Part shown: positions 7,289 through 24,881 of the stretch, piece after piece
Numbering within the stretch: the first letter of the stretch is position 1
Layout of the letters: every line of letters begins with the position of its first letter
Origin: Chitinophagales bacterium
GTDB lineage: Bacteria; Bacteroidota; Bacteroidia; Chitinophagales; CAIOSU01
Length of the DNA: 34,263 nt
Assembly (NCBI GenBank): GCA_026003335.1
Contig: BPHB01000005.1
Coordinates: 1-34,263, forward strand
Direction of reading: 5' to 3'
Notes under the pieces: model-generated
The model's input: the letters and a program-made list of their open reading frames with translations, nothing else
Told to the model about the DNA's origin: nothing
Databases searched by the model: none
Program-made: the position numbers and the translations under genes

Positions 7289-7314
7289 AACAATTATAAA
7301 TTACAAAAAAAAGT

Positions 7315-7355: not shown

Positions 7356-7427
7356 TAGTATAAGGAAAAGGGAAAAAGCCGATTCGCCCTAAAATGGAGG
7401 TAGGCAAAACTAAAAACAATAAGAACC

Positions 7428-7721
7428 ATGAAAGTTTTAAGATTGAAAAACTACCGGACAATTAACTCGGGGAAAATTTGGGAGGCTTATTTCAAAGCCG
7501 CAAAAAATGACAAACTAAAAGAAGTTTACGTTTACAAAAAAAGGCCGTTCGCGATGCATTGGAGCGACGGGTACGAGGAATCCCACATGTGTTTTGAATG
7601 GGGCGGGAAACTATACGCGGTGGTCTCTTACGACCACTACAATGGGCATATAAGCGGATTTACTGACGAGTCGGCTATCATCTCGATGAGAGTAGCCGAA
7701 GTAGTGGAGGAAGAAATTTAA
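7428..7721 (+). CDS. Uncharacterised protein (97 aa), own promoter
   Basis: This 97-residue soluble protein starts basic and ends acidic. The centre is aromatic-rich (HWSDGYEESHMCFEWGGKLY) and continues to YDHYNGHISGF. No family recognised. It is a single-gene unit, with a consensus promoter and dyad operator in front and a strong intrinsic terminator 12 bases after the stop codon. Such isolation suggests that it is expressed at a distinct level or time from its neighbours. The only other gene with the same operator is at 24956. Confidence 0.6.
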   Translation: MKVLRLKNYRTINSGKIWEAYFKAAKNDKLKEVYVYKKRPFAMHWSDGYEESHMCFEWGGKLYAVVSYDHYNGHISGFTDESAIISMRVAEVVEEEI

Positions 7722-8897: not shown

Positions 8898-9215
8898 ATG
8901 TCAAGAGTAAGATGTTTATTAGAGCGTCTCGGCTACATCGAGCGCTCTTGGGAAAGGTTTGATGAGGATGTATCAGAACTTTGGGAGGAATACACGAAAA
9001 CAAAAGGGGGGCGCCGCTTTTTCTGGGAATGGGACTGGGATTATACCAGCGCCCCCGAGCCTCCCGAGCTTATGACCCGCGAGCAGTTCAAAACATATCT
9101 CTTCGCTATATTGAAAGCTGAGGAGGTGGAGACACTAAGGCACCTCCTCAGATTAGGGTTGGATTATAGAACAGTTAAAGTATTAAAAAAAATACACAAA
9201 AAAGGGTTACTATGA
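8898..9215 (+). CDS. Uncharacterised acidic protein (105 aa)
   Basis: This 105-residue protein is rich in Glu, Arg and Trp in its first half (FFWEWDWDYT) and helical in its second (FKTYLFAILKAEEVETL). The last part (LLRLGLDYRTVKVLKKIHKK) could be a helix-turn-helix-like or simple helical segment; I do not consider it diagnostic. The stop overlaps the next ATG (9212-9215). Confidence 0.5.
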   Translation: MSRVRCLLERLGYIERSWERFDEDVSELWEEYTKTKGGRRFFWEWDWDYTSAPEPPELMTREQFKTYLFAILKAEEVETLRHLLRLGLDYRTVKVLKKIHKKGLL

Positions 9216-9571
9216 AAATAACTAAAAAAGTAGGTGCGTATAGTGTCGAGATAGACACGACTACTAAAGAAGTAAAAGCGACCTGCAAGGAGCCGTTTTC
9301 CTGTCAAGGCGGCGAGGTGTTCATTGACCGTGTGAAGGCACTGACTTTCAACATTCACGGCAAGGGGTGGCTGATTTCGGAGGCGCCTGGCGGGCGCCGG
9401 TACCTCGAAAAAGGAGGAGAAGTTAATATGATCCTTTATTTATTAAACACCAAAACCAGTAAAATGATTTACATACTGTTATGCATACGAGTTAATCAAA
9501 AAGCTAAACGTAAAATAAACACATTATGGCTATTCCAAAAAACAAATCGAGAATGCCAAATTGCGGGCTAA
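9212..9571 (+). CDS. Uncharacterised protein (119 aa); C-terminal third doubtful
   Basis: The first ~73 residues read like a compact beta domain (YSVEIDTTTKEVKATC, then VFIDRVKALTFNIHGKGW). From about residue 74 (base 9430) the composition becomes A+T-rich and low in charge pattern (MILYLLNTKTSKMIYILLC), unlike the rest. Its last 46 bases also overlap a zinc-ribbon reading frame starting at 9526. A ribosome-binding-like AAGGAGGAG at about 9411-9419 precedes an in-frame ATG at 9429. I think either the true protein is shorter after a recent frameshift, or the tail is a fortuitous extension. Function unknown. Confidence 0.45.
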   Translation: MKITKKVGAYSVEIDTTTKEVKATCKEPFSCQGGEVFIDRVKALTFNIHGKGWLISEAPGGRRYLEKGGEVNMILYLLNTKTSKMIYILLCIRVNQKAKRKINTLWLFQKTNRECQIAG

Positions 9572-9721
9572 CCTATGAGTATTATTGTTCTATTATTGAC
9601 TGCCCTGATTGCGGCGGCGGCGGGTGGATTGACGATAGATGTGGGCGCGTGGATATGCTGTAATTATTGTAAGGGGGTCGGGCACGTTGAAATTGAGGAA
9701 TACCGGTGCTGCATTTGGTGA
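9526..9721 (+). pseudogene. Small DnaJ-type zinc-ribbon gene, split by a +1 frameshift
   Basis: A frame from ATG 9526 to TAA 9661-9663 encodes 45 residues containing CPDCGGGGWI, a CxxCxGxG motif. In the +1 frame, from about 9656 to TGA 9719-9721, the DNA encodes CCNYCKGVGHVEIEEYRC, a second CxxCxGxG motif. DnaJ-type zinc fingers carry such motifs in pairs, so the two halves probably belong to one protein broken by one base between 9653 and 9660 (or recoded there). An alternative is a separate 48-residue ORF in the second frame from ATG 9575, with a hydrophobic N-terminus. The start overlaps the preceding ORF by 46 bases. Zinc binding is inferred from the cysteines. Confidence 0.5.
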
Positions 9722-9752
9722 TGATGGATGATGCACTGATGATGACTAAGGC

Positions 9753-9836
9753 TTGCCGGCTACGTTCGGTGATAAGCGTATAGAACAGATGAGCATTAAA
9801 GAATTAAAACAACTAAAATCTAAAATATCATGTTAG
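9753..9836 (+). other. Very short ORF before the annealing-protein gene (27 aa)
   Basis: From TTG 9753 to TAG 9834-9836 there are 27 codons ending KRIEQMSIKELKQLKSKISC, overlapping the annealing-protein ATG (9830) by 7 bases. The Lys/Glu-rich helix looks coding. An ATG at 9790 would give a 15-residue version. It may be a leader peptide coupling translation to the downstream gene, or the C-terminal relic of a broken gene. Between 9722 and 9829 nothing else is visible apart from repeated GATGATG runs. Confidence 0.25.
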
Positions 9837-10303
9837 AATTAATAAAAAAACTAAACGAATCGCCCAAGCCGGAGTGGGTAAAAGAGCACCCGTTCATTAA
9901 GGGCGTCAAATATCTACCTATCGACAAAGTAGAACTCCTGCTGAATTCGCTTTTTACGCGGGTAGATATTGAAATTAAAGAAGCCAAGGTGGAACTGAAT
10001 AGCTGCGTGGTGGTGGTTAGGCTCACCGTTTATACCGGTTCCGAAGTATTTCGTATAGTGGAGGGCGTCGGTGCGGCGCCTGTCAAGACCGCGCATGGGA
10101 GTGGAGCTTTGGACCTTGATAAAATGAACAGCTCTGCGCTTATGACAGGCTTCCCCGCTGCCGAGTCGTTCGCTATCAAAGACGCTGCCGAAAAACTTGG
10201 GCGCATCTTTGGGTGCGATTTGAACAGGAAAGACGCCATCCCGCTGCGGGATGGTTACTGGGATAAAGTCAAAGAAAATTATTGGGACAAGTATAAAAAA
10301 TAA
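9830..10303 (+). CDS. Rad52-like single-strand annealing protein
   Basis: The 157-residue protein fits the short phage Rad52/22 (Sak-like) annealing proteins. A helical N-terminus is followed by a beta sheet (residues 43-77), the glycine-rich turn GVGAAPVKTAHGSG (79-92) and the hallmark helix AAESFAIKDAAEKLGRIFG (110-128), followed by DLNRKD. These proteins coat resected single-stranded ends and anneal them. The partner exonuclease is the next gene, 5 bases downstream, forming a classic two-component recombination cassette. The 3' 260 bp of this gene is the start of the 5.5-kb duplication; a diverged, N-terminally truncated version is at 15565-15810. The ATG 9830 start is bounded by an in-frame stop at 9821. 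Confidence 0.75.
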   Translation: MLELIKKLNESPKPEWVKEHPFIKGVKYLPIDKVELLLNSLFTRVDIEIKEAKVELNSCVVVVRLTVYTGSEVFRIVEGVGAAPVKTAHGSGALDLDKMNSSALMTGFPAAESFAIKDAAEKLGRIFGCDLNRKDAIPLRDGYWDKVKENYWDKYKK

Positions 10304-10308
10304 GAATC

Positions 10309-10902
10309 ATGGACAGAAAACCTATTTTCAGCCCGAGCGGCGTGCATAAGTTGCTCGGTAAAGGGAAAAAAGAGTATTTTTCGCAAGAGGGCATCAGCTA
10401 CATATATGAAGTAGTGTACCGCCGCCTTGGGGGTGAGATACCTGACATCAACACTTTTTCGGTAAATTGGGGTAAGGAGCAGGAGCAGGAAGCCAAGAAA
10501 GTGCTGCGGGGGCTGGGCTACGAATTTGTCGATGGCGAGTTTAAAGCGTCTGTGGAATTCCCTGATTGGTTTGGAGGCACCTGCGATGGCTTGGGCGAGG
10601 ATTTTATACTCGAAATAAAATGCCCGTCCACTTACTTAGTTCACATGAAAAGCGTTCTGGACGGCGAAATAAACAAGGCTTATATTGCCCAGATGCAGGC
10701 ATACATGTGGCTATACGACAAGCCCCGTGCACTGTTTGTAAGCTTCGACCCGCGCTTGCCGCACGCTGCCGGCTTGCATGTGATTGAAGTACCCCGCGAA
10801 GAGGATAGTATTGAATTCATGAAGGAGCAGCTTGGGCATGCTATTGAGTACGCTGAAGAGTTACTCACCCGTTTAGAGAACGTTAAACTGCCAACTCTAT
10901 GA
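10309..10902 (+). CDS. YqaJ / lambda-type 5'-3' exonuclease
   Basis: The 197-residue protein belongs to the YqaJ/lambda-exonuclease branch of PD-(D/E)xK nucleases. Visible signature: FSPSGVHKLLGKGK near the N-terminus, the helix NWGKEQEQEA (53-62), GGTCDGL with the catalytic Asp at 93, LEIKCP with Glu 102 and Lys 104, and the YIAQMQAYMW helix (125-134) that ends the active site. It resects duplex ends to supply single strands for the adjacent Rad52-like protein. The stop overlaps the next ATG (10899-10902). The second copy (15817-16410) differs at one base, Phe88 here and Val88 there, close to the active site. Confidence 0.88.
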   Translation: MDRKPIFSPSGVHKLLGKGKKEYFSQEGISYIYEVVYRRLGGEIPDINTFSVNWGKEQEQEAKKVLRGLGYEFVDGEFKASVEFPDWFGGTCDGLGEDFILEIKCPSTYLVHMKSVLDGEINKAYIAQMQAYMWLYDKPRALFVSFDPRLPHAAGLHVIEVPREEDSIEFMKEQLGHAIEYAEELLTRLENVKLPTL

Positions 10903-11339
10903 AGATAGACCCCAGTACTTTGAAGGTAGGGCACGAAGGTGTTGCCCTGCCCGAGGGGGTACGGGAATTATTCCTTGTTCCCCGTAATATATCAGTAGAA
11001 GTTGAATTCCCTGTCGAGGATGACGGGGTCGTGTTAGAATACGACTTCCCTTTTTATGTACCTCAACACGCCGATTTTTCAACGCTCTTGAGTATCGCAT
11101 CGGGGTTCTGGCACAGAATTCAATACATCCACGACCGGCTTGGGGTAACTGTTCACGTATGTGTGTACTGCGAAGACGCCCTTGTGATCGCCCTGTTCGT
11201 GATGGCGGCTTTTTATGAAGGCTTTTTCATGTACACAGTAAAAATCGGGAAGGGGTCGAAAACGTGTTTGCGATACATCCCCGTAGGCGAGTACCGTTTC
11301 GTGGGCGATGCTTCGTATCTATTAACTAAACTAAAATAA
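10899..11339 (+). CDS. Uncharacterised protein in recombination operon (146 aa), copy 1
   Basis: This 146-residue protein is beta-rich in its first half (VEVEFPVEDDGVVLEYDFPF) and contains a hydrophobic helix around residues 88-108 (EDALVIALFVMAAFYEGFFM) that is probably buried rather than membrane-spanning. No family recognised. It is translationally coupled to the exonuclease (4-base overlap). Conservation between the two nuclease/helicase neighbours suggests a role in replication or recombination, but this is context only. Confidence 0.55.
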   Translation: MKIDPSTLKVGHEGVALPEGVRELFLVPRNISVEVEFPVEDDGVVLEYDFPFYVPQHADFSTLLSIASGFWHRIQYIHDRLGVTVHVCVYCEDALVIALFVMAAFYEGFFMYTVKIGKGSKTCLRYIPVGEYRFVGDASYLLTKLK

Positions 11340-11346
11340 AAGAGAC

Positions 11347-11616
11347 ATGGAAGAAATTGCTAAATTAATAATAGAGACAGCTAAAGAAAGCGACAATTGC
11401 GCTATAGCTGTTGTTTACAACGGGCTAACCGTTTCGGGGCTTGATTACCTCGAGAATTATGAGGTCATAGCGCTTAATGACCTTGCCGAACTTGAAGATA
11501 CATATAATGTCGTAGCGCTCTTTTGGCGTGATTATATTTTACGTCGTGATTTTGACACGATACTGCAAAAAGTTATTGACAGTTTAGAAGTTTTTTGGAG
11601 CTATTACGGTCAATAA
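11347..11616 (+). CDS. Small acidic protein (89 aa), copy 1
   Basis: The 89-residue product is acidic and predicted alpha/beta, with no Cys pair or nucleotide-binding motif. It starts 7 bases after the 146-aa gene, with AAAGAGAC just before the ATG, and ends one base before the helicase ATG. No family recognised. Small acidic proteins in phage replication operons can be loaders or inhibitors, but nothing visible supports a specific role. Confidence 0.5.
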   Translation: MEEIAKLIIETAKESDNCAIAVVYNGLTVSGLDYLENYEVIALNDLAELEDTYNVVALFWRDYILRRDFDTILQKVIDSLEVFWSYYGQ

Positions 11617-11617
11617 A

Positions 11618-12994
11618 ATGAAGTTAAGAGACTATCAGGCTGAGACGATAGCCCGCCTTCGGGAGTTGTTCAGGGGGCACCGTCGCGTGCTCCTCTGTCT
11701 CCCTACCGGCGGTGGTAAAACTGTGATATTTAGCCACATCGCCAAGCTTGCGCGTAGCGAGTGCGTTGTTCTGGTGCATCGTCGTGAGCTACAAGAGCAG
11801 GCCGCACGGGCGCTTGCGCGTGTGGGAGCACAAGGCGTTACGGTAGAGATGATTATGACTTATCGCAATAAAGTGAAGCGCGGCGAGCCTACACCCGGTT
11901 TTGTTATCATCGACGAGGCGCACCGTGGCGAGTTCATCAAACTACTCGAAATAATACCCGAAAACACATTTGTGCTCGGGGTTACGGCAACGCCCATTTT
12001 GACCGGCAAGCGCTCGTTAAGCGAGTTCTATTCAGGCTATTACGAGCCGCTGACGACCGGTGATTTGGTAGAAAAAGGGTACCTCTGTCGCTGCGCACAC
12101 TACGGAGTCCCGGAGGTGAAAGAGGTGAAACTATACGTACGGCAGGGCGAATACACCCCCGAAAGTCAGGAGGAGTATTTTCGAGGTGCCGGCGGCGTTG
12201 AGAATGTGCTGAATATGTATCATCAGTACGCTGCTGGGCGCCAGGCGGTTGTGTTTTGCCCGAGCCTGAAATTAGCCCGCGAAATTGCCGGGGCGTTTGG
12301 CGATACTGCTGAAATAGTAGACGGCGGTATGGATACAAGGCAACGCGAGGCTATTATAGAAGGCTTCAAACGCGGCGATATACGCATATTGACGAACGTT
12401 GACATCGTAACAACCGGGTTCGATTACCCCGCGCTCGATACAATCATATTAGCACGCAAGACGAAAAGCCGCGCGCTTTATTTTCAGATGCTGGGACGCG
12501 GGGCGCGTAAACACCCTGGTAAGGACTATTTTACGGTACTTGACCTTGGTAACAATTTTCAGGAGCATGGGTTGTATGACGACCCAACAAACCGGTGGGA
12601 ACCGTATTTTTACGGTAATCACTTAAAAAAGTCTGCCGGGGATGAGCAGGGCGTACCCCCCGCAAAATCTTGCATTGAGTGCCTTGCGCTGCTACACCCC
12701 CGAGCTCAGTTTTGTCATGTTTGCGGCGCCGAGCAGCCGAAGCCGAAAAAAGAAGCGGTAAGAGTTGAAAAAATGGTAGAAATTAGTAAATTGATATCTA
12801 AAAGATGGGAAGAGCTTGCGATTGATGAGCTCGACGCCTATGCTTCTGCCAAAGGCTACAAACACCACTGGGTGATACATCAACTATTACGGCGCGGCAG
12901 ACATGCCCTTGAAGAATATGCCGCCTTGAAAGGCTACAAACATGGCTGGGTAGCATTCACACTATCAAAAATAGCTAAAAACAAACTCGTATGA
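11618..12994 (+). CDS. SF2 DEAD/DEAH-box helicase, copy 1
   Basis: The 458-residue protein is a superfamily 2 helicase. Motif I is PTGGGKT (29-35), motif II DEAH (99-102), motif III TATP (123-126), and motif VI is in QMLGRGARKHPGKD near residues 290-304. After the second RecA-like domain there are two CxxC pairs (residues 352-370, CIECLALLHPRAQFCHVCG) that should bind zinc. The C-terminus then carries two copies of a KGYKHxWV element (about 404-425 and 431-449). It probably unwinds DNA during replication or recombination; it resembles short phage helicases related to the type III restriction/UvsW group. It overlaps the primase start by 4 bases. An identical copy is at 17126-18502. Confidence 0.9.
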   Translation: MKLRDYQAETIARLRELFRGHRRVLLCLPTGGGKTVIFSHIAKLARSECVVLVHRRELQEQAARALARVGAQGVTVEMIMTYRNKVKRGEPTPGFVIIDEAHRGEFIKLLEIIPENTFVLGVTATPILTGKRSLSEFYSGYYEPLTTGDLVEKGYLCRCAHYGVPEVKEVKLYVRQGEYTPESQEEYFRGAGGVENVLNMYHQYAAGRQAVVFCPSLKLAREIAGAFGDTAEIVDGGMDTRQREAIIEGFKRGDIRILTNVDIVTTGFDYPALDTIILARKTKSRALYFQMLGRGARKHPGKDYFTVLDLGNNFQEHGLYDDPTNRWEPYFYGNHLKKSAGDEQGVPPAKSCIECLALLHPRAQFCHVCGAEQPKPKKEAVRVEKMVEISKLISKRWEELAIDELDAYASAKGYKHHWVIHQLLRRGRHALEEYAALKGYKHGWVAFTLSKIAKNKLV

Positions 12995-15033
12995 GTAAAA
13001 TATCAGTTTATAAGAACGTTCGTGACAACAGCGGTTTTGCCGTTTGGGATATAGCCGACTTCCTCTTTCTTGTAAGACACGAGTTAAGCCCCGAAGTTGC
13101 TCAATACCGACGCGGCGAACGGGACAAGAAAGATATCCCTGCTGTGACAGTGAGCGGTGTTTTTGAACCGACGCGCCGGAAAGAGAATTTAAAGCACCAC
13201 AGCGGCTTTATAGCCGTTGACATAGACAACAATACAGAGGTAGCCGAAACCCTGCGGGCTGACAAGTACACTTATGCGCTATTTAAGAGCGTGAGCGGCA
13301 AGGGGCTTTGTGTGATTGTACGCCTACCGGCAGGGATTGAGACAGCCGAGGAGCATGAAGCCTACGCCCGCGCCCTTTTCGAATATTACTATAAGCTGTA
13401 TAGCATCGAGGTCGACGAGAGCTGCAAGGACGTGACCCGCCTGCGTATCCTGAGCCACGACCGAGACTTATATTTGAATGAAAAAGCGCAGGTATTTGAA
13501 GCTAAGAAAGAGATAGAATGCCCGCGGGTTGTGAATAACGACCCGCTACCGCTTGGCGACAGTGATATTGAGCGAATAGAGCGCCTTGTGCGTTTGATAG
13601 AAGAGAAAGAGATTGATATTTGCGACAGTTACGATGACTGGATGCGCCTCTCTTTCGCATTCCAGCGCGTGCCTAACGGACGTGACTTTTTCGAACGGAT
13701 TTCATATATTAGAGGTAAAGTAAAGCCCGATACGCAGGCGGCAGACCCTCGCAAGGTGGAGTTACAGTTCGAAAGAGCTGCGAGGTACGCACCAAAAAGC
13801 GACATAGGCACATTTTTCTATCTTTGCAAGCGCAGGGGGCTTTATGTAGGGAGAGGTAAAAAAAACAATAAAAATGAGAAAATGAATGCGGAAGAGCTGG
13901 GGTATGACCTGAGTAATGCCGGCGACTTTGTGGAGTACACGGTGCGGTTGAACTCAGAGCGGTTTTATTTCGATACTCTACGTCAAACGCTTTTTATAGA
14001 CAACAAGGAGGCGGACGAGGTGGCGATAAATTCAGTATGGAACGAGATACGGCGCTTGTATCCGAAAAAGAAACTTGACAAGAGTATAGTAACAAACATA
14101 CTTTACTCGAATGTTGTCAGGCAGGTTGACCCGCTCGCCGAGCTCCTGGACGAGCTGCCGGAGCCGGGCGATTACGGGATGATAAAACAACTCGCGGCGT
14201 CGCTAAAAACGAAATACGACATACCTGTAGAGTTGTATCTTCGCAAATTCCTTGTCGGCATCATCGGGGGCATGAAAGCACGGCGGGACAGTCCTGGCAC
14301 CCCCTGCGCGCAGTTTACGCCGGTGCTGGTCGGGGGCCCCGGATTGGGCAAAACGTATTTTTGTCAAAACCTATTGCCCGACTCTTTCAAGGAATTTGTA
14401 GCCGAGATAGCGTTGACCGGCAAACCCACAGACGATTATCCCGTGATGTTCAATAATTTGCTGGTGGTCATCGACGAGTGGGACAGCGTAAAGCGTGTAC
14501 CCGCCCCCTACTTCCGAAATTTGATTACAATGAAAGACAAGACCGTGCGCTTGTCCTATCGTCGTGACCCCCTGACCTACATACGCCGGGCGAGCATCAT
14601 AGGGACAAGTAACCACATCGACCTCATCCCCGACCCGCAAAACAACCGCCGTATTGTACCTATCGAGGTGGTGGACATCGACCATGATTTGTACAATTCT
14701 GTTGACAAAACGCTGTTGCTTGCGGAAGCGATGTATTGGTATAATCAAGGTGAAGTGGCTCAAATAAGTTCAGACGATTTAGCAGTATTTAACACAGCCG
14801 ACAGCCCGTACGCATCTCTGAACGACGTTGAAATAATAGTCAAGGAGCATGTAATGCCCTCCGCCGAATTCATATATACTGCTACCGAGATAGCGGCGCT
14901 AATCAAGGAAAAGTACAATTTACAAGTAAGCCCGCGCAAGGTTTCGTCTGTATTGAAGACATACGGCTATGAATACACAGAAGCACGTATAAACACAGTG
15001 AAAAAGAAAGGATTCAGGGTAGAGTTACTATGA
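12991..15033 (+). CDS. VirE_N-type primase fused to P-loop helicase, copy 1
   Basis: The 680-residue protein combines an N-terminal BT4734/VirE_N-like domain (residues ~1-170: NLKHHSGFIAVDID, SVSGKGLCVIVR and VTRLRILSHDRDLYLN) with a C-terminal VirE-type ATPase. The Walker A motif GGPGLGKT lies at about residues 447-454, Walker B VVIDEWD near 492-498, and a sensor-like GTSNHID then NNRRIVPIEV further on. This architecture is the standard replicative primase-helicase of Bacteroidota phages and mobile elements. It would prime and unwind phage DNA for the host polymerase, since no phage polymerase is present. It overlaps both neighbours by 4 bases. An identical copy is at 18499-20541. Confidence 0.88.
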   Translation: MSKISVYKNVRDNSGFAVWDIADFLFLVRHELSPEVAQYRRGERDKKDIPAVTVSGVFEPTRRKENLKHHSGFIAVDIDNNTEVAETLRADKYTYALFKSVSGKGLCVIVRLPAGIETAEEHEAYARALFEYYYKLYSIEVDESCKDVTRLRILSHDRDLYLNEKAQVFEAKKEIECPRVVNNDPLPLGDSDIERIERLVRLIEEKEIDICDSYDDWMRLSFAFQRVPNGRDFFERISYIRGKVKPDTQAADPRKVELQFERAARYAPKSDIGTFFYLCKRRGLYVGRGKKNNKNEKMNAEELGYDLSNAGDFVEYTVRLNSERFYFDTLRQTLFIDNKEADEVAINSVWNEIRRLYPKKKLDKSIVTNILYSNVVRQVDPLAELLDELPEPGDYGMIKQLAASLKTKYDIPVELYLRKFLVGIIGGMKARRDSPGTPCAQFTPVLVGGPGLGKTYFCQNLLPDSFKEFVAEIALTGKPTDDYPVMFNNLLVVIDEWDSVKRVPAPYFRNLITMKDKTVRLSYRRDPLTYIRRASIIGTSNHIDLIPDPQNNRRIVPIEVVDIDHDLYNSVDKTLLLAEAMYWYNQGEVAQISSDDLAVFNTADSPYASLNDVEIIVKEHVMPSAEFIYTATEIAALIKEKYNLQVSPRKVSSVLKTYGYEYTEARINTVKKKGFRVELL

Positions 15034-15440
15034 AAGTAGATATAAAAGACTTCATTAGAGACTTACACAAAAACGGGGCGTCGCTCATAGAGATGAAGCA
15101 GGCGCTCATACAGGCGGGGTACGTTAAAAGCGACAAGGAAGCGAAAGCGCTGATTCGAGGTGTCCTCGATTTCGAAGACACCGCCATAGCACAAGGGCGT
15201 CCGCTCGATGATTTTTTGAACTGGGCGATAAGCGACATCATTGTGAATGAGATACGAGCGCTAAAGAGCAAGCAGGGCAAACTTACCGATCCAGAGTTCA
15301 AGCGCTTTGTAGAGCTTTGTAAATTAATAGGCTACGACGTTTACAGTAAGAAACGTATAGAGGCCGACTTTGAAGCCAACAAAGACACCACTACGCGCCC
15401 TGTACTGAAAATCGGAGATATAGAAATAGACCTGGGATGA
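15030..15440 (+). CDS. Putative small terminase subunit, copy 1
   Basis: The 136-residue protein opens with a helical region that could hold a helix-turn-helix (FIRDLHKNGASLIEMKQALI, then QAGYVKSDKEAKALI), followed by helices and a short beta tail. Its place directly before the large terminase with an ATGA overlap (15437-15440), its size and its likely DNA-binding N-terminus fit a small terminase, which recognises the packaging site. I do not recognise a specific TerS family, so the call rests mainly on position. In copy 1 the following terminase is truncated; the functional pair would be copy 2 (20538 and 20945). Confidence 0.5.
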   Translation: MKVDIKDFIRDLHKNGASLIEMKQALIQAGYVKSDKEAKALIRGVLDFEDTAIAQGRPLDDFLNWAISDIIVNEIRALKSKQGKLTDPEFKRFVELCKLIGYDVYSKKRIEADFEANKDTTTRPVLKIGDIEIDLG

Positions 15441-15565
15441 TAATCAAACCTTTCGCTACGCAAGAAAAATTTATAAAGGCGGCATTGTCTGGCAAGTATT
15501 CGGTGATATATTTCGGCGGCGCTATACGAGGCGGCAAAACCTTCGCCGGGTTGTATTTCGTATAG
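15437..15565 (+). pseudogene. Large terminase, 5' fragment truncated at duplication joint
   Basis: The first 39 codons are identical to the intact large terminase (20945-22291) and include the Walker A loop GGAIRGGKT. After base 15553 the sequence jumps to the annealing-protein gene, adding Tyr-Phe-Val and then TAG (15563-15565). The product would be a 42-residue peptide without ATPase or nuclease activity. This is the left side of the duplication joint. Its stop overlaps the GTG of the truncated annealing-protein frame (TAGTG). Confidence 0.92.
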
Positions 15566-15810
15566 TGGAGGGCGTCGGTGCGGCGCCTGTCAAGACCGCG
15601 CAGGGGAGTGGAGCTTTGGACCTTGATAAAATGAACAGCTCTGCGCTTATGACAGGCTTCCCCGCTGCCGAGTCGTTCGCTATCAAGGACGCCGCCGAAA
15701 AGTTGGGGCGGATTTTTGGCAGCGATTTGAACAGGAAAGACGTGCTCTCTTTGGGAGCCGGATACTGGGACAAAGTTAAAGAAAATTACTGGGACAAATA
15801 TAAAAAATAA
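15565..15810 (+). pseudogene. Rad52-like annealing protein, N-terminally truncated diverged allele
   Basis: A GTG-initiated frame of 81 codons corresponds to residues 77-157 of the protein at 9830-10303. It lacks the first 76 residues, so most of the beta sheet is missing and annealing activity is unlikely. The hallmark ESFAIKDAAEKLGRIFG is kept. Relative to copy 1 it has seven substitutions: His89Gln, Cys129Ser, Ala136Val, Ile137Leu, Pro138Ser, Arg140Gly and Asp141Ala. Many silent changes accompany them, so this is a true homologous allele and not sequencing noise. Confidence 0.88.
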
Positions 15811-15816
15811 AGAATC

Positions 15817-16410
15817 ATGGACAGAAAACCTATTTTCAGCCCGAGCGGCGTGCATAAGTTGCTCGGTAAAGGGAAAAAAGAGTATTTTTCGCAAGAGGGC
15901 ATCAGCTACATATATGAAGTAGTGTACCGCCGCCTTGGGGGTGAGATACCTGACATCAACACTTTTTCGGTAAATTGGGGTAAGGAGCAGGAGCAGGAAG
16001 CCAAGAAAGTGCTGCGGGGGCTGGGCTACGAATTTGTCGATGGCGAGTTTAAAGCGTCTGTGGAATTCCCTGATTGGGTTGGAGGCACCTGCGATGGCTT
16101 GGGCGAGGATTTTATACTCGAAATAAAATGCCCGTCCACTTACTTAGTTCACATGAAAAGCGTTCTGGACGGCGAAATAAACAAGGCTTATATTGCCCAG
16201 ATGCAGGCATACATGTGGCTATACGACAAGCCCCGTGCACTGTTTGTAAGCTTCGACCCGCGCTTGCCGCACGCTGCCGGCTTGCATGTGATTGAAGTAC
16301 CCCGCGAAGAGGATAGTATTGAATTCATGAAGGAGCAGCTTGGGCATGCTATTGAGTACGCTGAAGAGTTACTCACCCGTTTAGAGAACGTTAAACTGCC
16401 AACTCTATGA
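15817..16410 (+). CDS. YqaJ / lambda-type exonuclease, copy 2
   Basis: Same protein as 10309-10902 (197 residues, Asp93, Glu102 and Lys104 active-site set) except Val88 in place of Phe88, caused by G at 16078. The gene follows the truncated annealing-protein allele by 6 bases instead of 5. If both copies exist in one genome, this one could be expressed from readthrough of the copy 1 operon. Confidence 0.85.
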   Translation: MDRKPIFSPSGVHKLLGKGKKEYFSQEGISYIYEVVYRRLGGEIPDINTFSVNWGKEQEQEAKKVLRGLGYEFVDGEFKASVEFPDWVGGTCDGLGEDFILEIKCPSTYLVHMKSVLDGEINKAYIAQMQAYMWLYDKPRALFVSFDPRLPHAAGLHVIEVPREEDSIEFMKEQLGHAIEYAEELLTRLENVKLPTL

Positions 16411-16847
16411 AGATAGACCCCAGTACTTTGAAGGTAGGGCACGAAGGTGTTGCCCTGCCCGAGGGGGTACGGGAATTATTCCTTGTTCCCCGTAATATAT
16501 CAGTAGAAGTTGAATTCCCTGTCGAGGATGACGGGGTCGTGTTAGAATACGACTTCCCTTTTTATGTACCTCAACACGCCGATTTTTCAACGCTCTTGAG
16601 TATCGCATCGGGGTTCTGGCACAGAATTCAATACATCCACGACCGGCTTGGGGTAACTGTTCACGTATGTGTGTACTGCGAAGACGCCCTTGTGATCGCC
16701 CTGTTCGTGATGGCGGCTTTTTATGAAGGCTTTTTCATGTACACAGTAAAAATCGGGAAGGGGTCGAAAACGTGTTTGCGATACATCCCCGTAGGCGAGT
16801 ACCGTTTCGTGGGCGATGCTTCGTATCTATTAACTAAACTAAAATAA
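16407..16847 (+). CDS. Uncharacterised protein (146 aa), copy 2
   Basis: Residue-for-residue identical to the protein at 10899-11339. It overlaps the exonuclease copy 2 stop by 4 bases. Function unknown; see copy 1 for description. Confidence 0.55.
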   Translation: MKIDPSTLKVGHEGVALPEGVRELFLVPRNISVEVEFPVEDDGVVLEYDFPFYVPQHADFSTLLSIASGFWHRIQYIHDRLGVTVHVCVYCEDALVIALFVMAAFYEGFFMYTVKIGKGSKTCLRYIPVGEYRFVGDASYLLTKLK

Positions 16848-16854
16848 AAGAGAC

Positions 16855-17124
16855 ATGGAAGAAATTGCTAAATTAATAATAGAGACAGCTAAAGAAAGCG
16901 ACAATTGCGCTATAGCTGTTGTTTACAACGGGCTAACCGTTTCGGGGCTTGATTACCTCGAGAATTATGAGGTCATAGCGCTTAATGACCTTGCCGAACT
17001 TGAAGATACATATAATGTCGTAGCGCTCTTTTGGCGTGATTATATTTTACGTCGTGATTTTGACACGATACTGCAAAAAGTTATTGACAGTTTAGAAGTT
17101 TTTTGGAGCTATTACGGTCAATAA
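16855..17124 (+). CDS. Small acidic protein (89 aa), copy 2
   Basis: Identical to the product of 11347-11616, with the same spacing to its neighbours. Function unknown. Confidence 0.5.
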   Translation: MEEIAKLIIETAKESDNCAIAVVYNGLTVSGLDYLENYEVIALNDLAELEDTYNVVALFWRDYILRRDFDTILQKVIDSLEVFWSYYGQ

Positions 17125-17125
17125 A

Positions 17126-18502
17126 ATGAAGTTAAGAGACTATCAGGCTGAGACGATAGCCCGCCTTCGGGAGTTGTTCAGGGGGCACCGTCGCGTGCTC
17201 CTCTGTCTCCCTACCGGCGGTGGTAAAACTGTGATATTTAGCCACATCGCCAAGCTTGCGCGTAGCGAGTGCGTTGTTCTGGTGCATCGTCGTGAGCTAC
17301 AAGAGCAGGCCGCACGGGCGCTTGCGCGTGTGGGAGCACAAGGCGTTACGGTAGAGATGATTATGACTTATCGCAATAAAGTGAAGCGCGGCGAGCCTAC
17401 ACCCGGTTTTGTTATCATCGACGAGGCGCACCGTGGCGAGTTCATCAAACTACTCGAAATAATACCCGAAAACACATTTGTGCTCGGGGTTACGGCAACG
17501 CCCATTTTGACCGGCAAGCGCTCGTTAAGCGAGTTCTATTCAGGCTATTACGAGCCGCTGACGACCGGTGATTTGGTAGAAAAAGGGTACCTCTGTCGCT
17601 GCGCACACTACGGAGTCCCGGAGGTGAAAGAGGTGAAACTATACGTACGGCAGGGCGAATACACCCCCGAAAGTCAGGAGGAGTATTTTCGAGGTGCCGG
17701 CGGCGTTGAGAATGTGCTGAATATGTATCATCAGTACGCTGCTGGGCGCCAGGCGGTTGTGTTTTGCCCGAGCCTGAAATTAGCCCGCGAAATTGCCGGG
17801 GCGTTTGGCGATACTGCTGAAATAGTAGACGGCGGTATGGATACAAGGCAACGCGAGGCTATTATAGAAGGCTTCAAACGCGGCGATATACGCATATTGA
17901 CGAACGTTGACATCGTAACAACCGGGTTCGATTACCCCGCGCTCGATACAATCATATTAGCACGCAAGACGAAAAGCCGCGCGCTTTATTTTCAGATGCT
18001 GGGACGCGGGGCGCGTAAACACCCTGGTAAGGACTATTTTACGGTACTTGACCTTGGTAACAATTTTCAGGAGCATGGGTTGTATGACGACCCAACAAAC
18101 CGGTGGGAACCGTATTTTTACGGTAATCACTTAAAAAAGTCTGCCGGGGATGAGCAGGGCGTACCCCCCGCAAAATCTTGCATTGAGTGCCTTGCGCTGC
18201 TACACCCCCGAGCTCAGTTTTGTCATGTTTGCGGCGCCGAGCAGCCGAAGCCGAAAAAAGAAGCGGTAAGAGTTGAAAAAATGGTAGAAATTAGTAAATT
18301 GATATCTAAAAGATGGGAAGAGCTTGCGATTGATGAGCTCGACGCCTATGCTTCTGCCAAAGGCTACAAACACCACTGGGTGATACATCAACTATTACGG
18401 CGCGGCAGACATGCCCTTGAAGAATATGCCGCCTTGAAAGGCTACAAACATGGCTGGGTAGCATTCACACTATCAAAAATAGCTAAAAACAAACTCGTAT
18501 GA
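17126..18502 (+). CDS. SF2 DEAD/DEAH-box helicase, copy 2
   Basis: Identical in all 458 residues to the helicase at 11618-12994, including PTGGGKT, DEAH, the CxxC pairs and the two C-terminal KGYKHxWV elements. Identity over a gene this long means that the duplication is very recent or is an assembly product. Confidence 0.9.
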   Translation: MKLRDYQAETIARLRELFRGHRRVLLCLPTGGGKTVIFSHIAKLARSECVVLVHRRELQEQAARALARVGAQGVTVEMIMTYRNKVKRGEPTPGFVIIDEAHRGEFIKLLEIIPENTFVLGVTATPILTGKRSLSEFYSGYYEPLTTGDLVEKGYLCRCAHYGVPEVKEVKLYVRQGEYTPESQEEYFRGAGGVENVLNMYHQYAAGRQAVVFCPSLKLAREIAGAFGDTAEIVDGGMDTRQREAIIEGFKRGDIRILTNVDIVTTGFDYPALDTIILARKTKSRALYFQMLGRGARKHPGKDYFTVLDLGNNFQEHGLYDDPTNRWEPYFYGNHLKKSAGDEQGVPPAKSCIECLALLHPRAQFCHVCGAEQPKPKKEAVRVEKMVEISKLISKRWEELAIDELDAYASAKGYKHHWVIHQLLRRGRHALEEYAALKGYKHGWVAFTLSKIAKNKLV

Positions 18503-20541
18503 GTAAAATATCAGTTTATAAGAACGTTCGTGACAACAGCGGTTTTGCCGTTTGGGATATAGCCGACTTCCTCTTTCTTGTAAGACACGAGTTAAGCCCC
18601 GAAGTTGCTCAATACCGACGCGGCGAACGGGACAAGAAAGATATCCCTGCTGTGACAGTGAGCGGTGTTTTTGAACCGACGCGCCGGAAAGAGAATTTAA
18701 AGCACCACAGCGGCTTTATAGCCGTTGACATAGACAACAATACAGAGGTAGCCGAAACCCTGCGGGCTGACAAGTACACTTATGCGCTATTTAAGAGCGT
18801 GAGCGGCAAGGGGCTTTGTGTGATTGTACGCCTACCGGCAGGGATTGAGACAGCCGAGGAGCATGAAGCCTACGCCCGCGCCCTTTTCGAATATTACTAT
18901 AAGCTGTATAGCATCGAGGTCGACGAGAGCTGCAAGGACGTGACCCGCCTGCGTATCCTGAGCCACGACCGAGACTTATATTTGAATGAAAAAGCGCAGG
19001 TATTTGAAGCTAAGAAAGAGATAGAATGCCCGCGGGTTGTGAATAACGACCCGCTACCGCTTGGCGACAGTGATATTGAGCGAATAGAGCGCCTTGTGCG
19101 TTTGATAGAAGAGAAAGAGATTGATATTTGCGACAGTTACGATGACTGGATGCGCCTCTCTTTCGCATTCCAGCGCGTGCCTAACGGACGTGACTTTTTC
19201 GAACGGATTTCATATATTAGAGGTAAAGTAAAGCCCGATACGCAGGCGGCAGACCCTCGCAAGGTGGAGTTACAGTTCGAAAGAGCTGCGAGGTACGCAC
19301 CAAAAAGCGACATAGGCACATTTTTCTATCTTTGCAAGCGCAGGGGGCTTTATGTAGGGAGAGGTAAAAAAAACAATAAAAATGAGAAAATGAATGCGGA
19401 AGAGCTGGGGTATGACCTGAGTAATGCCGGCGACTTTGTGGAGTACACGGTGCGGTTGAACTCAGAGCGGTTTTATTTCGATACTCTACGTCAAACGCTT
19501 TTTATAGACAACAAGGAGGCGGACGAGGTGGCGATAAATTCAGTATGGAACGAGATACGGCGCTTGTATCCGAAAAAGAAACTTGACAAGAGTATAGTAA
19601 CAAACATACTTTACTCGAATGTTGTCAGGCAGGTTGACCCGCTCGCCGAGCTCCTGGACGAGCTGCCGGAGCCGGGCGATTACGGGATGATAAAACAACT
19701 CGCGGCGTCGCTAAAAACGAAATACGACATACCTGTAGAGTTGTATCTTCGCAAATTCCTTGTCGGCATCATCGGGGGCATGAAAGCACGGCGGGACAGT
19801 CCTGGCACCCCCTGCGCGCAGTTTACGCCGGTGCTGGTCGGGGGCCCCGGATTGGGCAAAACGTATTTTTGTCAAAACCTATTGCCCGACTCTTTCAAGG
19901 AATTTGTAGCCGAGATAGCGTTGACCGGCAAACCCACAGACGATTATCCCGTGATGTTCAATAATTTGCTGGTGGTCATCGACGAGTGGGACAGCGTAAA
20001 GCGTGTACCCGCCCCCTACTTCCGAAATTTGATTACAATGAAAGACAAGACCGTGCGCTTGTCCTATCGTCGTGACCCCCTGACCTACATACGCCGGGCG
20101 AGCATCATAGGGACAAGTAACCACATCGACCTCATCCCCGACCCGCAAAACAACCGCCGTATTGTACCTATCGAGGTGGTGGACATCGACCATGATTTGT
20201 ACAATTCTGTTGACAAAACGCTGTTGCTTGCGGAAGCGATGTATTGGTATAATCAAGGTGAAGTGGCTCAAATAAGTTCAGACGATTTAGCAGTATTTAA
20301 CACAGCCGACAGCCCGTACGCATCTCTGAACGACGTTGAAATAATAGTCAAGGAGCATGTAATGCCCTCCGCCGAATTCATATATACTGCTACCGAGATA
20401 GCGGCGCTAATCAAGGAAAAGTACAATTTACAAGTAAGCCCGCGCAAGGTTTCGTCTGTATTGAAGACATACGGCTATGAATACACAGAAGCACGTATAA
20501 ACACAGTGAAAAAGAAAGGATTCAGGGTAGAGTTACTATGA
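18499..20541 (+). CDS. VirE_N-type primase-helicase, copy 2
   Basis: Identical in all 680 residues to the protein at 12991-15033. Overlaps of 4 bases with helicase copy 2 and with the putative small terminase copy 2 are preserved. Confidence 0.88.
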   Translation: MSKISVYKNVRDNSGFAVWDIADFLFLVRHELSPEVAQYRRGERDKKDIPAVTVSGVFEPTRRKENLKHHSGFIAVDIDNNTEVAETLRADKYTYALFKSVSGKGLCVIVRLPAGIETAEEHEAYARALFEYYYKLYSIEVDESCKDVTRLRILSHDRDLYLNEKAQVFEAKKEIECPRVVNNDPLPLGDSDIERIERLVRLIEEKEIDICDSYDDWMRLSFAFQRVPNGRDFFERISYIRGKVKPDTQAADPRKVELQFERAARYAPKSDIGTFFYLCKRRGLYVGRGKKNNKNEKMNAEELGYDLSNAGDFVEYTVRLNSERFYFDTLRQTLFIDNKEADEVAINSVWNEIRRLYPKKKLDKSIVTNILYSNVVRQVDPLAELLDELPEPGDYGMIKQLAASLKTKYDIPVELYLRKFLVGIIGGMKARRDSPGTPCAQFTPVLVGGPGLGKTYFCQNLLPDSFKEFVAEIALTGKPTDDYPVMFNNLLVVIDEWDSVKRVPAPYFRNLITMKDKTVRLSYRRDPLTYIRRASIIGTSNHIDLIPDPQNNRRIVPIEVVDIDHDLYNSVDKTLLLAEAMYWYNQGEVAQISSDDLAVFNTADSPYASLNDVEIIVKEHVMPSAEFIYTATEIAALIKEKYNLQVSPRKVSSVLKTYGYEYTEARINTVKKKGFRVELL

Positions 20542-20948
20542 AAGTAGATATAAAAGACTTCATTAGAGACTTACACAAAAACGGGGCGTCGCTCATAGAG
20601 ATGAAGCAGGCGCTCATACAGGCGGGGTACGTTAAAAGCGACAAGGAAGCGAAAGCGCTGATTCGAGGTGTCCTCGATTTCGAAGACACCGCCATAGCAC
20701 AAGGGCGTCCGCTCGATGATTTTTTGAACTGGGCGATAAGCGACATCATTGTGAATGAGATACGAGCGCTAAAGAGCAAGCAGGGCAAACTTACCGATCC
20801 AGAGTTCAAGCGCTTTGTAGAGCTTTGTAAATTAATAGGCTACGACGTTTACAGTAAGAAACGTATAGAGGCCGACTTTGAAGCCAACAAAGACACCACT
20901 ACGCGCCCTGTACTGAAAATCGGAGATATAGAAATAGACCTGGGATGA
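20538..20948 (+). CDS. Putative small terminase subunit, copy 2
   Basis: Identical to the 136-residue product of 15030-15440. Here the gene leads by an ATGA overlap (20945-20948) into the full-length large terminase, so this is the functional small/large terminase pair if the small-subunit assignment is right. That assignment rests on position, size and a possible N-terminal helix-turn-helix. Confidence 0.5.
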   Translation: MKVDIKDFIRDLHKNGASLIEMKQALIQAGYVKSDKEAKALIRGVLDFEDTAIAQGRPLDDFLNWAISDIIVNEIRALKSKQGKLTDPEFKRFVELCKLIGYDVYSKKRIEADFEANKDTTTRPVLKIGDIEIDLG

Positions 20949-22291
20949 TAATCAAACCTTTCGCTACGCAAGAAAAATTTATAAAGGCGGCATTGTCTGG
21001 CAAGTATTCGGTGATATATTTCGGCGGCGCTATACGAGGCGGCAAAACCTTCGCCGGGTTGCTGGCTATTCTTGCCCTTGCCCGGGTGTACCCTAAGAGC
21101 CGCTGGCTCGTAGTACGTAAGGACTACCAGCGCCTGCGTTTAACGACCATCCCCTCGTTCTACAAAATACTACCCGACGCTGCCGTTTCCGGTAACGTGT
21201 GTAAGCTGTCGAACGGGAGCGAAATCATATTTTTCGCTGAGAACTACGACAGAGACAAGGACTTGAACCGCTTTCGGGGGTTGGAAATCAACGGGGCTTT
21301 GTTGGAGGAGGCGAATGAATTACAGGAGCTTACGTTTATCAAGGTGCAAGAGCGTGTAGGGACACATATCATTGACCCCATGCCCAAACCGTTGATACTT
21401 TTAACTTCAAACCCCGACGACAACTGGGTGAAACTGAAATTTTACGATAGATGGAAGAGGAAAGAGTTGCCTGCGGGGTGGGGGTATATCCCTTCCAGGT
21501 TGTCAGATAACCCGCACATCCCCAAAGAAGTGGTTGATAATTACAAGCATCTGCCGGCAGAGGCGTATAAACGATTCGTTGAGGGCGATTGGGAAGTGAA
21601 AATACAGGTCCCCGACCCGTTTTATCACGCTTTTGACCAGCATCGCCACCTCGTGTCCTGCGAATACAACCCCGATTTGCCGTTGCATTTATCGGTGGAT
21701 GAGAACGTAGAGCCGTACATGGCGGCGACGGTGTATCAAATCGTTGCCCCCGCCACGGTTCACATGATAGACTTCATCCCGGCAAAAAACGTAGAGCACC
21801 TGTGCCGGGAATTTACTGCGCGGTATTACTTTCATGAAGGCGCCGTGTTCCTATACGGAGACGCTACAAGCCAACGCCGCAGCGCGCGCATTTCGGGCAA
21901 CTTGTTTACTTTAATAGAGAACTATCTCGAACGCTTCAAAGTGATTAACAAAGTACTGACAAGCAACCCGCCGCACCACGCCCGGTGGCTGTTTGTCAAT
22001 GAATGTTTAGAAAAAGATACGCCCGTACGCCTGCGATTCGACAAATCACTGATGGACGTGGAGATTGAAATGCTGACCGTTCGCTACGCCCCGGATGGCT
22101 CTAAAATGAAGGAAAAGATAAGGCAGGACGGTAAGACGTTTGAAAAAAACGGGCACATCAGCGATACGCTCGATTACTTCTTAGTTTCAGCATTCAATGA
22201 CGCCTTCCGTGCGATGACGGCTGGCAAAAACAAAATAGAAGCAACGCTTGAAAGACTTTCAAAACCAAAAACCAAAAATCCACTGTTATGA
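20945..22291 (+). CDS. terL: Large terminase subunit (packaging ATPase-nuclease)
   Basis: The 448-residue protein has the full terminase layout. Walker A is GGAIRGGKT (27-35), Walker B ALLEEANE (118-125) with the catalytic Glu pair, and the coupling motif LLTSNP is at 152-157. The C-terminal RNase H-like nuclease domain shows LSVDEN (Asp252), YGDAT (Asp306) and a late DTLDYF. It cuts concatemers and drives DNA into the prohead through the portal (27385-28404), which lies far away on the other strand. It overlaps the next gene by 4 bases. The first 117 bp lie in the duplication; the truncated copy is at 15437-15565. Confidence 0.93.
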   Translation: MIIKPFATQEKFIKAALSGKYSVIYFGGAIRGGKTFAGLLAILALARVYPKSRWLVVRKDYQRLRLTTIPSFYKILPDAAVSGNVCKLSNGSEIIFFAENYDRDKDLNRFRGLEINGALLEEANELQELTFIKVQERVGTHIIDPMPKPLILLTSNPDDNWVKLKFYDRWKRKELPAGWGYIPSRLSDNPHIPKEVVDNYKHLPAEAYKRFVEGDWEVKIQVPDPFYHAFDQHRHLVSCEYNPDLPLHLSVDENVEPYMAATVYQIVAPATVHMIDFIPAKNVEHLCREFTARYYFHEGAVFLYGDATSQRRSARISGNLFTLIENYLERFKVINKVLTSNPPHHARWLFVNECLEKDTPVRLRFDKSLMDVEIEMLTVRYAPDGSKMKEKIRQDGKTFEKNGHISDTLDYFLVSAFNDAFRAMTAGKNKIEATLERLSKPKTKNPLL

Positions 22292-22692
22292 ACAGAGAAC
22301 TCTTATTATTCAGAAACGCGACCGTGCTCACTCAATTGCTGATTGAGACACTCGACGAGATGACCGAGAACCGCTTTTATCGTAGAGAGTTAAAGGCGGC
22401 TGGGAATCGGTTCTTAAAAGAGCTCGAGCATCACAATTTGAAGTTTTTCAGCGCTGCCGAGCTCACAAAAGATAACGACGCACAGATGCTCTTCCACGAG
22501 GTTGTGAGCGCTTGGGAGGACACGCTAAGTAAGTTTTTGAAAGCTGACTTAGTGACTCAAAGCGCTATTATCTTAGCGCTTGAAAACCGCGACGCTGCTT
22601 ATAAGTTCTTAGAAGACAACAACTTCTACGACGCTAAGCCTGAGCTTGTCGCAGAAATTAAGCGAGTATATGAGGAAGGAAGACAGACTTAA
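22288..22692 (+). CDS. Uncharacterised helical protein (134 aa)
   Basis: This 134-residue protein is almost entirely helical and highly charged (TVLTQLLIETLDEMTENRFY at the start, YKFLEDNNFYDAKPELVAEI at the end). No family recognised. It is coupled to the large terminase (ATGA overlap) and overlaps the VRR-NUC gene by 23 bases. A packaging or replication accessory role is possible from position alone. Confidence 0.55.
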   Translation: MNRELLLFRNATVLTQLLIETLDEMTENRFYRRELKAAGNRFLKELEHHNLKFFSAAELTKDNDAQMLFHEVVSAWEDTLSKFLKADLVTQSAIILALENRDAAYKFLEDNNFYDAKPELVAEIKRVYEEGRQT

Positions 22693-23038
22693 TTACGAAG
22701 TCGTAAAATATTTTAGAGAACGGGCGCTCGGTTTCATATTTCACATCCCGAACGAGGGTGTGCGCTCCGCCCGGCAGGCGGCTTCTTTGATAGCCCAAGG
22801 GCTCACGGCGGGTGTCCCTGACTTTTTCGTAGCGCTTAAAAACGGGCGTTCATTCTTTGTAGAACTGAAAACAGAGAAAGGGCGCTTGTCAAAGCGGCAA
22901 AAAGTAGTAGTAAAACAACTAAACGAGTGCAATCAAAGAGTATACTTATGCAGAACGATACAAGAGTTTCAAGCAGGTATTAGAGAGCGAGCGGGCTGGT
23001 GCCAGCGTGCGAGCGGTTACTTATTTCAGAATAATTGA
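22670..23038 (+). CDS. VRR-NUC domain nuclease
   Basis: From ATG 22670 the product has 122 residues and matches the compact phage VRR-NUC nucleases: an N-terminal helix, HIPNEGVRS, then GVPDFFVALKNGRSFFVELK with the catalytic Asp and the E-x-K pair, and LSKRQKVVVKQL. These stand-alone VRR-NUC proteins are PD-(D/E)xK enzymes believed to cut branched DNA such as Holliday junctions, useful for resolving concatemers before packaging. An in-frame TTG at 22646 would add 8 residues; I prefer the ATG because the alignment-like core begins right after it. The gene overlaps both neighbours. Confidence 0.85.
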   Translation: MRKEDRLNYEVVKYFRERALGFIFHIPNEGVRSARQAASLIAQGLTAGVPDFFVALKNGRSFFVELKTEKGRLSKRQKVVVKQLNECNQRVYLCRTIQEFQAGIRERAGWCQRASGYLFQNN

Positions 23039-24850: not shown

Positions 24851-24881
24851 ATTTAGACCCATTCTAAATTTGTAAAAAACT

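What the first reader, a model, noticed from the sequence alone, without database searches (positions are those of the whole stretch)
10047..21061. 5.5-kb tandem duplication of the replication/packaging module whose two copies differ only at one end
Seen: 10047-15553 and 15554-21061 are adjacent copies. The first ~260 bp of copy 2 is a clearly diverged allele of the Rad52-like gene (more than 20 substitutions, one indel, 7 amino-acid changes), yet the following ~5.25 kb differs at a single base (10570/16078). A simple duplication would diverge evenly. The pattern needs two parental sequences. It could be an illegitimate joint between the terminase gene of one phage genome and the annealing-protein gene of a relative, or an assembler walking a shared 5.25-kb path twice in a mixed population. 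Collapsing the copies restores one intact gene set (~28.4 kb). If real, the phage would carry two helicases and two primases and would be at the mercy of its own annealing system.
Basis: partly seen in the sequence, partly recalled or inferred. Interest (0 to 1): 0.8.

Follow-up and report, generated by a model that had tools for sequence, protein, structure and literature searches.

The report
Phage contig with recent module duplication
A 34-kb phage contig carries a DNA-replication gene block twice in tandem; the two copies are almost identical and meet at a gene-breaking joint that probably links two near-identical strains of one phage, either by ordinary unequal recombination or as a sequencing/assembly chimera.

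Summary
The tandem copies are in the sequence: 10046-15553 and 15553-21061. One description needs correcting. The divergence is not the outer 260 bp of copy 2: the first 133 bp differ at one base, then comes a 112-bp block with 24 substitutions, an indel at the rad52 stop codon, and 5.25 kb with one more mismatch. The block is near saturation at synonymous sites (pS 0.74, pN 0.07): an old functional allele, brought in as a short recombination patch. It shows a second strain; it does not mark the joint. The joint shares 1 bp and breaks terL after 39 codons and rad52 at codon 73. Distant relatives show the module's genes once in the stretches seen. No near relative was found. The window is a whole, circularly closing contig of a 24-contig bin that keeps strain variants of another phage apart (C6/C8). 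Best reading: a very recent, unequal, homology-poor joint between two strain variants of one ~28.4-kb phage. In-cell recombination and read/assembly chimera are nearly equally likely; neither is a new kind of system. Reads decide.

The parts
9830..10303 (+). intact Rad52-like annealing-protein gene, allele A (157 aa)
   Evidence: PHROG 15333, unknown function, E 1.5e-09; Pfam Rad52_Rad22 found in 10 of 14 aligned family members at E<=0.1 (best 6.9e-05) but not in this member itself
10046..15553 (+). copy 1 of the duplicated module, ending inside terL
   Evidence: self-BLAST; alignment
15553..21061 (+). copy 2 of the duplicated module, beginning inside rad52
   Evidence: self-BLAST; alignment
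15553..15554 (.). joint: terL after codon 39 to rad52 codon 73; 1 bp (G) shared to the left, none to the right
   Evidence: translation
10180..10303 (+). patch, allele A: 24 substitutions against copy 2 within 10180-10291, indel at the stop codon
15687..15810 (+). patch, allele B, in the 5'-truncated second rad52
10309..10902 (+). exonuclease (YqaJ type), copy 1; residue 88 is F (10570 T)
   Evidence: PF09588, PHROG 149; position check
15817..16410 (+). exonuclease, copy 2; residue 88 is V (16078 G)
   Evidence: translation; identical to copy 1 apart from that site
11618..12994 (+). helicase, copy 1 (copy 2 at 17126-18502)
   Evidence: PHROG 16, ResIII/Helicase_C
12991..15033 (+). primase-helicase, BT4734-like N-domain plus VapE-like domain, copy 1 (copy 2 at 18499-20541)
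   Evidence: PF08800, PF05272
15030..15440 (+). 136-aa gene directly before terL, copy 1 (copy 2 at 20538-20948); no family match; small terminase by position only
   Evidence: position compared with FPSV-S27
15437..15553 (+). 3'-truncated terminase large subunit fragment
   Evidence: identical to 20945-21061; stop three codons after the joint
20945..22291 (+). intact terminase large subunit
   Evidence: PHROG 2, PF04466
1..320 (.). end overlap with 33944-34263, one mismatch (57/34000): circular map

Best explanation
The contig records one unequal, homology-poor joint between two near-identical strain variants (A and B) of a single ~28.4-kb circularly mapping tailed phage. In this region B differs from A mainly by a ~112-bp recombination patch at the 3' end of the rad52-like gene. 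I lean, only slightly, to the joint having formed in the cell: during replication or concatemer recombination an A genome broken inside terL was joined to a B genome inside rad52. That gave, in a single event, a 5.5-kb tandem duplication with one intact gene set plus a broken terL and a broken rad52 at the seam. Shown: the copies, the patch, the joint and its broken genes. Inferred: two parents, one event, in-cell origin. The duplication should be short-lived, because 4,983 identical bp in direct orientation are a substrate for its loss (established knowledge, not tested).
For: Direct tandem copies with 1 mismatch in 5251 bp downstream of the patch. Joint with 1 shared bp inside two genes. Same phage, same orientation, local, as recombination would give and random read chimerism rarely would (inference). 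The contig closes on itself around the duplication and its large genes are open. Patch with pS 0.74 and pN 0.07, i.e. a functional allele from another lineage, with near identity on both sides. Distant relatives show single genes in the annotated stretches: Rad52-like then exonuclease in the TM7 phage; VirE, VRR-NUC, packaging protein, TerL in FPSV-S27. Direct repeats of 500 bp or more in 0 of 52 relative loci (stretches, not whole genomes). Tandem phage duplications are documented: T4 tifA (PMC9391042, passages) and EfV12-phi1 (PMC6365445, passages).
Against: No read, coverage or second assembly supports the joint. The copies are so alike that the event must be very recent or the same DNA was used twice. 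The genome would be 19% longer than the collapsed one. The bin demonstrably holds strain variants, which also feeds the artefact reading. The three isolated mismatches are all G/T, and the copy-1 residue is absent from the relatives at both protein positions checked, so base errors are plausible in this contig. Neither allele nor the joint was found in IMG/VR by exact 21-23-mers, which is weak evidence as no close relative of the phage is held there.
Confidence: 0.43

Rival explanations
1. Sequencing or assembly chimera: two strain variants of a 28.4-kb phage lived in the sample, and a chimeric read (or misjoin) linked A inside terL to B inside rad52; the assembler then passed the shared 5.25 kb twice.
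For: Strain-variant contigs in the same bin: C6/C8 (phage), C11/C13, C14/C18, C16/C21. [quoted passage not shown] CheckV removed 6,543 of 751,567 terminal-repeat contigs for a duplicated region of 20% or more of the contig and ascribes these to assemblers concatenating genomes (PMC8116208, passages); one copy here is 16% of the contig. Isolated G/T mismatches look like base errors.
Against: The joint must exist in at least one read; random chimeras rarely join two pieces of one phage in the same orientation (inference). The contig closes on itself. Strains A and B would have to be identical or nearly so over 5.25 kb, although the longest aligned segments of the variant pairs in the bin differ by 0.4-2.3%.
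Confidence: 0.33
2. Terminal redundancy read as a tandem: virions hold 33.9 kb of a 28.4-kb genome, so each molecule starts at rad52 (10047) and ends 5.5 kb past one full turn in terL (15553). Cut at the joint, the contig is such a molecule with a 5.5-kb direct terminal repeat that is heterozygous at rad52; the joint is two virion ends ligated in the library or in the cell.
For: The circle cut at 15553 is exactly a terminally redundant linear molecule. A joint without homology is what end ligation gives. Several distant relatives by TerL or primase are 34-36 kb (FPSV-S1, lotta8, phi46:1, P12024). Concatenated virus ends are a known read chimera (PMC8862349, passages).
Against: Listed relatives also include 24.0 kb (FPSV-S27), 37-39 kb, 42-43 kb and 112 kb genomes, so size is a weak argument. 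TerL identity to the 34-35-kb phages is 31-32% over about half the query. 19% redundancy is large; both ends would lie inside genes, the left one about 5.4 kb before terL in a collapsed map. Packaging type was not determined.
Confidence: 0.1
3. Two circles merged by the assembler: a 28.4-kb phage with allele A and a separate 5.5-kb minicircle (15554-21061 closed at the same joint) with allele B, carrying exonuclease, helicase and primase-helicase as a defective or satellite replicon.
For: The sequence alone cannot tell one 33.9-kb circle from these two circles sharing 5.25 kb. Allele B occurs only next to the joint in this bin.
Against: No other contig of the bin matches the module. No origin or maintenance gene of its own was identified (none was specifically searched for beyond family scans).
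Confidence: 0.06

Closest known systems
Segmental tandem amplification in phage T4 (dmd-tifA, PMC9391042; abstract and passages seen)
   Same: Tandem direct repeats of a few genes made by recombination in a phage, with a genome-size penalty set by the capsid
   Different: There coverage and PCR prove it, microhomology marks the joints and selection is known; here no reads, two alleles, 1-bp joint, no known selection
EfV12-phi1 tail-fibre tandem duplications (PMC6365445; abstract and passages seen)
   Same: Tandem duplication in a phage genome, resolved there with long reads
   Different: 1.8 kb, in frame, within one gene, several copy numbers; here 5.5 kb, out of frame, many genes
Multi-strain or chimeric viral contigs of metagenome assemblies (viralFlye, PMC8862349; CheckV, PMC8116208; passages seen)
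   Same: Strain mixture, concatenated ends, duplicated regions within contigs
   Different: Here the duplicated part is a sub-genomic module with a patch difference, not a whole-genome concatemer
Rad52-like / YqaJ-type exonuclease gene pair of phages (PHROG 15333, PF04098, PF09588)
   Same: Adjacent genes in the same order as in TM7 phage DolZOral124_53_65 (Rad52-like relative, then exonuclease)
   Different: Second rad52 copy is 5'-truncated and carries the B patch

Membership tests
Recombination-borne tandem duplication of a phage segment | two adjacent direct copies of one segment | tested here: met
Recombination-borne tandem duplication of a phage segment | single-copy arrangement in relatives | tested here: met
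   distant relatives only, stretches only
Recombination-borne tandem duplication of a phage segment | joint present in independent molecules | not testable with these tools
   no reads or coverage available
Recombination-borne tandem duplication of a phage segment | microhomology at the joint (as in the T4 amplifications) | tested here: not met
   1 shared base to the left, 0 to the right; homology-free phage duplications are also known (recalled)
Strain-mixture chimera of a metagenome assembly | strain variants coexist in the assembly | tested here: met
   C6 has TerL, portal and major head hits, C8 a major head hit. Shown for other contigs, not for the C5 phage itself
Strain-mixture chimera of a metagenome assembly | half depth per copy or a depth drop at the joint | not testable with these tools
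   no reads
Long direct terminal repeat / headful terminal redundancy | read-end pile-up at the repeat ends | not testable with these tools
   no reads
Rad52-like annealing protein | match to PF04098 Rad52_Rad22 | tested here: inconclusive
   10 of 14 alignment members match at E<=0.1, best 6.9e-05; the window protein itself does not; in the PDB only one chance hit at E 0.87

The most novel reading that the evidence does not exclude
The joint closes a separate 5.5-kb minicircle (15554-21061) carrying the phage's exonuclease, helicase and primase-helicase and its own rad52 allele: a defective or satellite replicon that lives on the phage's replication module and was merged with the 28.4-kb phage during assembly.
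Probability: 0.06. Interest if true: 0.6.

Novelty: new member of a known kind. Interest (0 to 1): 0.3.

Why it matters
If the joint is real it is a snapshot of a phage caught shortly after an unequal exchange between two strains, with a duplicated replication module that its own annealing system should remove: a natural counterpart of the T4 amplifications seen in the laboratory. If it is a chimera, it is a useful warning: a phage of about 28.4 kb would stand recorded as 33.9 kb, with false extra helicase, primase and exonuclease genes.

Tried and rejected
Considered and rejected: divergence as decay of the truncated second rad52. The patch is strongly purified (Sd 17, Nd 7; pS 0.74, pN 0.07) and its 5' neighbour in the same truncated gene is almost unchanged. 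Diversity-generating retroelement: no reverse transcriptase hit among the 25 distinct proteins scanned (not every ORF), and 17 of the 24 block changes are synonymous. A donor for the patch within the bin: a DNA search with 9500-10400 finds only the two copies in C5. A chromosomal prophage copy: outside C5, searches show only matches under 40 bp and one 70-bp match in C7 (the promoter-like repeat). Which allele is native by codon usage: log-likelihood -38.9 (A) and -42.1 (B), GC3 0.54 and 0.59, too close to decide. Absence of 16S in the bin (0 of 1; control rang in 9 of 14) as evidence on the assembly: dropped, because part of that neighbourhood is withheld, while 23S and 5S are present in C1.

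Led nowhere: megablast of 9000-22000 against phages and plasmids (no match); module DNA in 60 genomes, 0 of the 59 besides the own; TerL in 395 genomes of the phylum, 6 besides the own, at 34% identity or less; primase in IMG/VR (none of 1 candidate stretch) and TerL in genome contigs (none of 39); exact 21-23-mers of both alleles and the joint in IMG/VR, 0 each, without a positive control; capsid-gene candidate 29205-30374 in phages, no match; Rfam and tRNA scans, none. Paper searches: (0 papers); seen as listings with abstract starts, except the four papers whose passages were read.

Full report
OBSERVATION. Self-BLAST of the window gives two strong off-diagonal matches: 15553-21061 against 10046-15553 (99.51%, 26 mismatches, 1 gap), and 33944-34263 against 1-320 with one mismatch; two short repeats are also listed. 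The window is contig C5, whole, of a 3.9-Mb, 24-contig assembly; the end overlap makes it a circular map of 33,943 bp, or 28,435 bp with one copy. Position by position, the copies differ at one base in 10047-10179, at 24 bases in 10180-10291, by an indel at the rad52 stop codon, and at one base (10570/16078) in 10303-15553. So the diverged block is internal: 133 bp of near identity lie between it and the joint.

THE PATCH. The 24 block changes fall within a span of 41 codons: 17 synonymous and 7 nonsynonymous by path counting, pS 0.74 and pN 0.07. Six amino-acid changes lie in the block; the seventh (H/Q) is the isolated mismatch at 10096. Synonymous sites are near saturation while the protein is conserved, so A and B are long-separated functional alleles, and the block is a short recombination patch that ends at the gene boundary. 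Codon usage does not say which is native. In the alignment with 16 relatives neither allele stands out.

THE ISOLATED MISMATCHES. Three remain: 57 G/34000 T, 10096 T/15603 G, 10570 T/16078 G. All are G/T. At 10096 copy 1 encodes H; the 16 relatives have K (14), Q (1), A (1), some of them near-identical to each other. At 10570 copy 1 encodes F; of 23 aligned relatives I 19, V 2, T 1, gap 1. At 34000 the tape-measure codon is K against N. These may be base errors, in which case the two 5.25-kb parts are identical; this is inference.

THE JOINT. terL is cut after 39 codons, just past its Walker A motif (motif recalled), and meets a stop three codons on; rad52 resumes at codon 73 in another frame. 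One base is shared at the breakpoint. Copy 2 has an intact exonuclease, two small genes, helicase, primase-helicase and the 136-aa gene before terL, and leads into the only intact terL; copy 1 follows the only intact rad52 and repeats the same genes.

RELATIVES. Nothing close was found: megablast of 9000-22000 none; TerL in IMG/VR 13 loci, best 41%; Rad52-like 16 loci at 40-50% and one genome-contig locus at 47%; exonuclease 22 loci at 36% or less. The tools warn that records of the window's own or very near genomes may be left out. In TM7 phage DolZOral124_53_65 the Rad52-like relative is followed directly by an exonuclease. In Flavobacterium phage FPSV-S27 the order is VirE, virulence-associated protein E, VRR-NUC, DNA packaging protein, PBSX-type TerL, later Dcm, similar to the collapsed window, where VRR-NUC (22646-23038) comes after TerL and before the C5 methylase. 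Direct repeats of 500 bp or more were found in 0 of 52 relative loci, which are stretches and not whole genomes. The single-copy order is thus the likely ancestral one.

SURROUNDINGS. Of the other contigs I examined C4 and C6-C24 whole and the first 20 kb of C1-C3. Several are variant pairs: C6/C8 at 97.7% over 14.1 kb with an inverted 6.8-kb part, C11/C13 at 98.0% over 9.7 kb, C14/C18 at 99.6% over 9.4 kb, C16/C21 at about 99% over 4.7 kb; further shared segments of these pairs are less alike, down to 80%. C6 encodes TerL, portal and major head protein and C8 a major head protein: two variants of one phage; C7 is a third phage (portal, head, tape measure). The assembly therefore keeps strain variants apart, and a mixture of A and B strains of the C5 phage is plausible, though not shown. 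That it is a metagenome assembly from long reads is my inference from these pairs, from the inexact end overlap and from all contigs being 7.9 kb or longer; no record says so. The same facts cut both ways: these variants differ by 0.4-2.3% in their longest segments, while the module copies differ at 1 of 5251 bases downstream of the patch.

MECHANISM. Two things must be explained: the illegitimate joint and the two alleles. One unequal joint between an A and a B genome explains both. It can happen in a cell, where phages are known to gain tandem segments by recombination (T4, PMC9391042, passages; EfV12-phi1, PMC6365445, passages), or in the library or assembler, where concatenated virus ends and chimeric viral contigs are known (PMC8862349, passages) and where large duplicated regions in viral contigs are treated as artefacts (6,543 of 751,567 contigs, PMC8116208, passages). 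A shared path alone does not create the joint, so the artefact reading needs a chimeric read as well. Two special forms stay open: virion ends of a terminally redundant genome, since the contig cut at the joint is a linear molecule with a 5.5-kb, heterozygous terminal repeat; and a 5.5-kb minicircle. I put in-cell exchange at 0.43, chimera at 0.33, joined virion ends at 0.10 and minicircle at 0.06: close to a coin toss between biology and artefact.

CONSEQUENCE. In each case but the minicircle the extra 5.5 kb is recent and unlikely to be an established feature. Loss by recombination between the 4,983-bp identical runs is expected from established knowledge of direct repeats, more so in a phage with an annealing protein and exonuclease; this was not tested. 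The finding is a known kind of event, or a known kind of artefact, in an otherwise little-known phage.

Noticed in passing
window 7281-7369 and 24849-24937: A ~90-bp intergenic repeat (81%) holds the same 17-bp near-palindrome GTGCAAAAATTTTGCAC at 7315-7331 and 24882-24898 (0 of 100 shuffles reach that count) just upstream of TAnnTTTG, the Bacteroidota -7 element (recalled); the looser two-box pattern alone is only weakly enriched (4 matches, 3 of 100 shuffles reach it). Probably two promoters with one operator.
   Followed up: partly
G000 contig C7 22599-22668: Another phage-like contig of the same bin has a weaker match (79%) to the same promoter-like repeat.
   Followed up: no
G000 contigs C6 and C8: Two variants of one phage differ by an inversion of about 6.8 kb that includes TerL; C8 has inverted ~100-bp repeats at 1-99 and 20434-20533. 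Could be an invertible segment or an assembly effect.
   Followed up: no
window 5934-6908 and 23607-24446: Two DNA methyltransferase genes (N6/N4 type and C5 type) in one small phage genome.
   Followed up: no
window 9830-10303; L067, L110: The Rad52-like protein's best match among phage records is a TM7 phage (46.7%), ahead of Cellulophaga phages (31.3%), and its only genome-contig match is a Saccharibacteria MAG contig (47%).
   Followed up: no
window 7428-7721, 22288-23038, 31465-34260: A few window proteins have weak to moderate matches in other contigs of the bin (7428 ORF 54% over 48 aa in C8; VRR-NUC 32% in C6 and C8; 22288 ORF 31% in C4; tape measure 24% in C7), so its phages share a few genes.
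   Followed up: no
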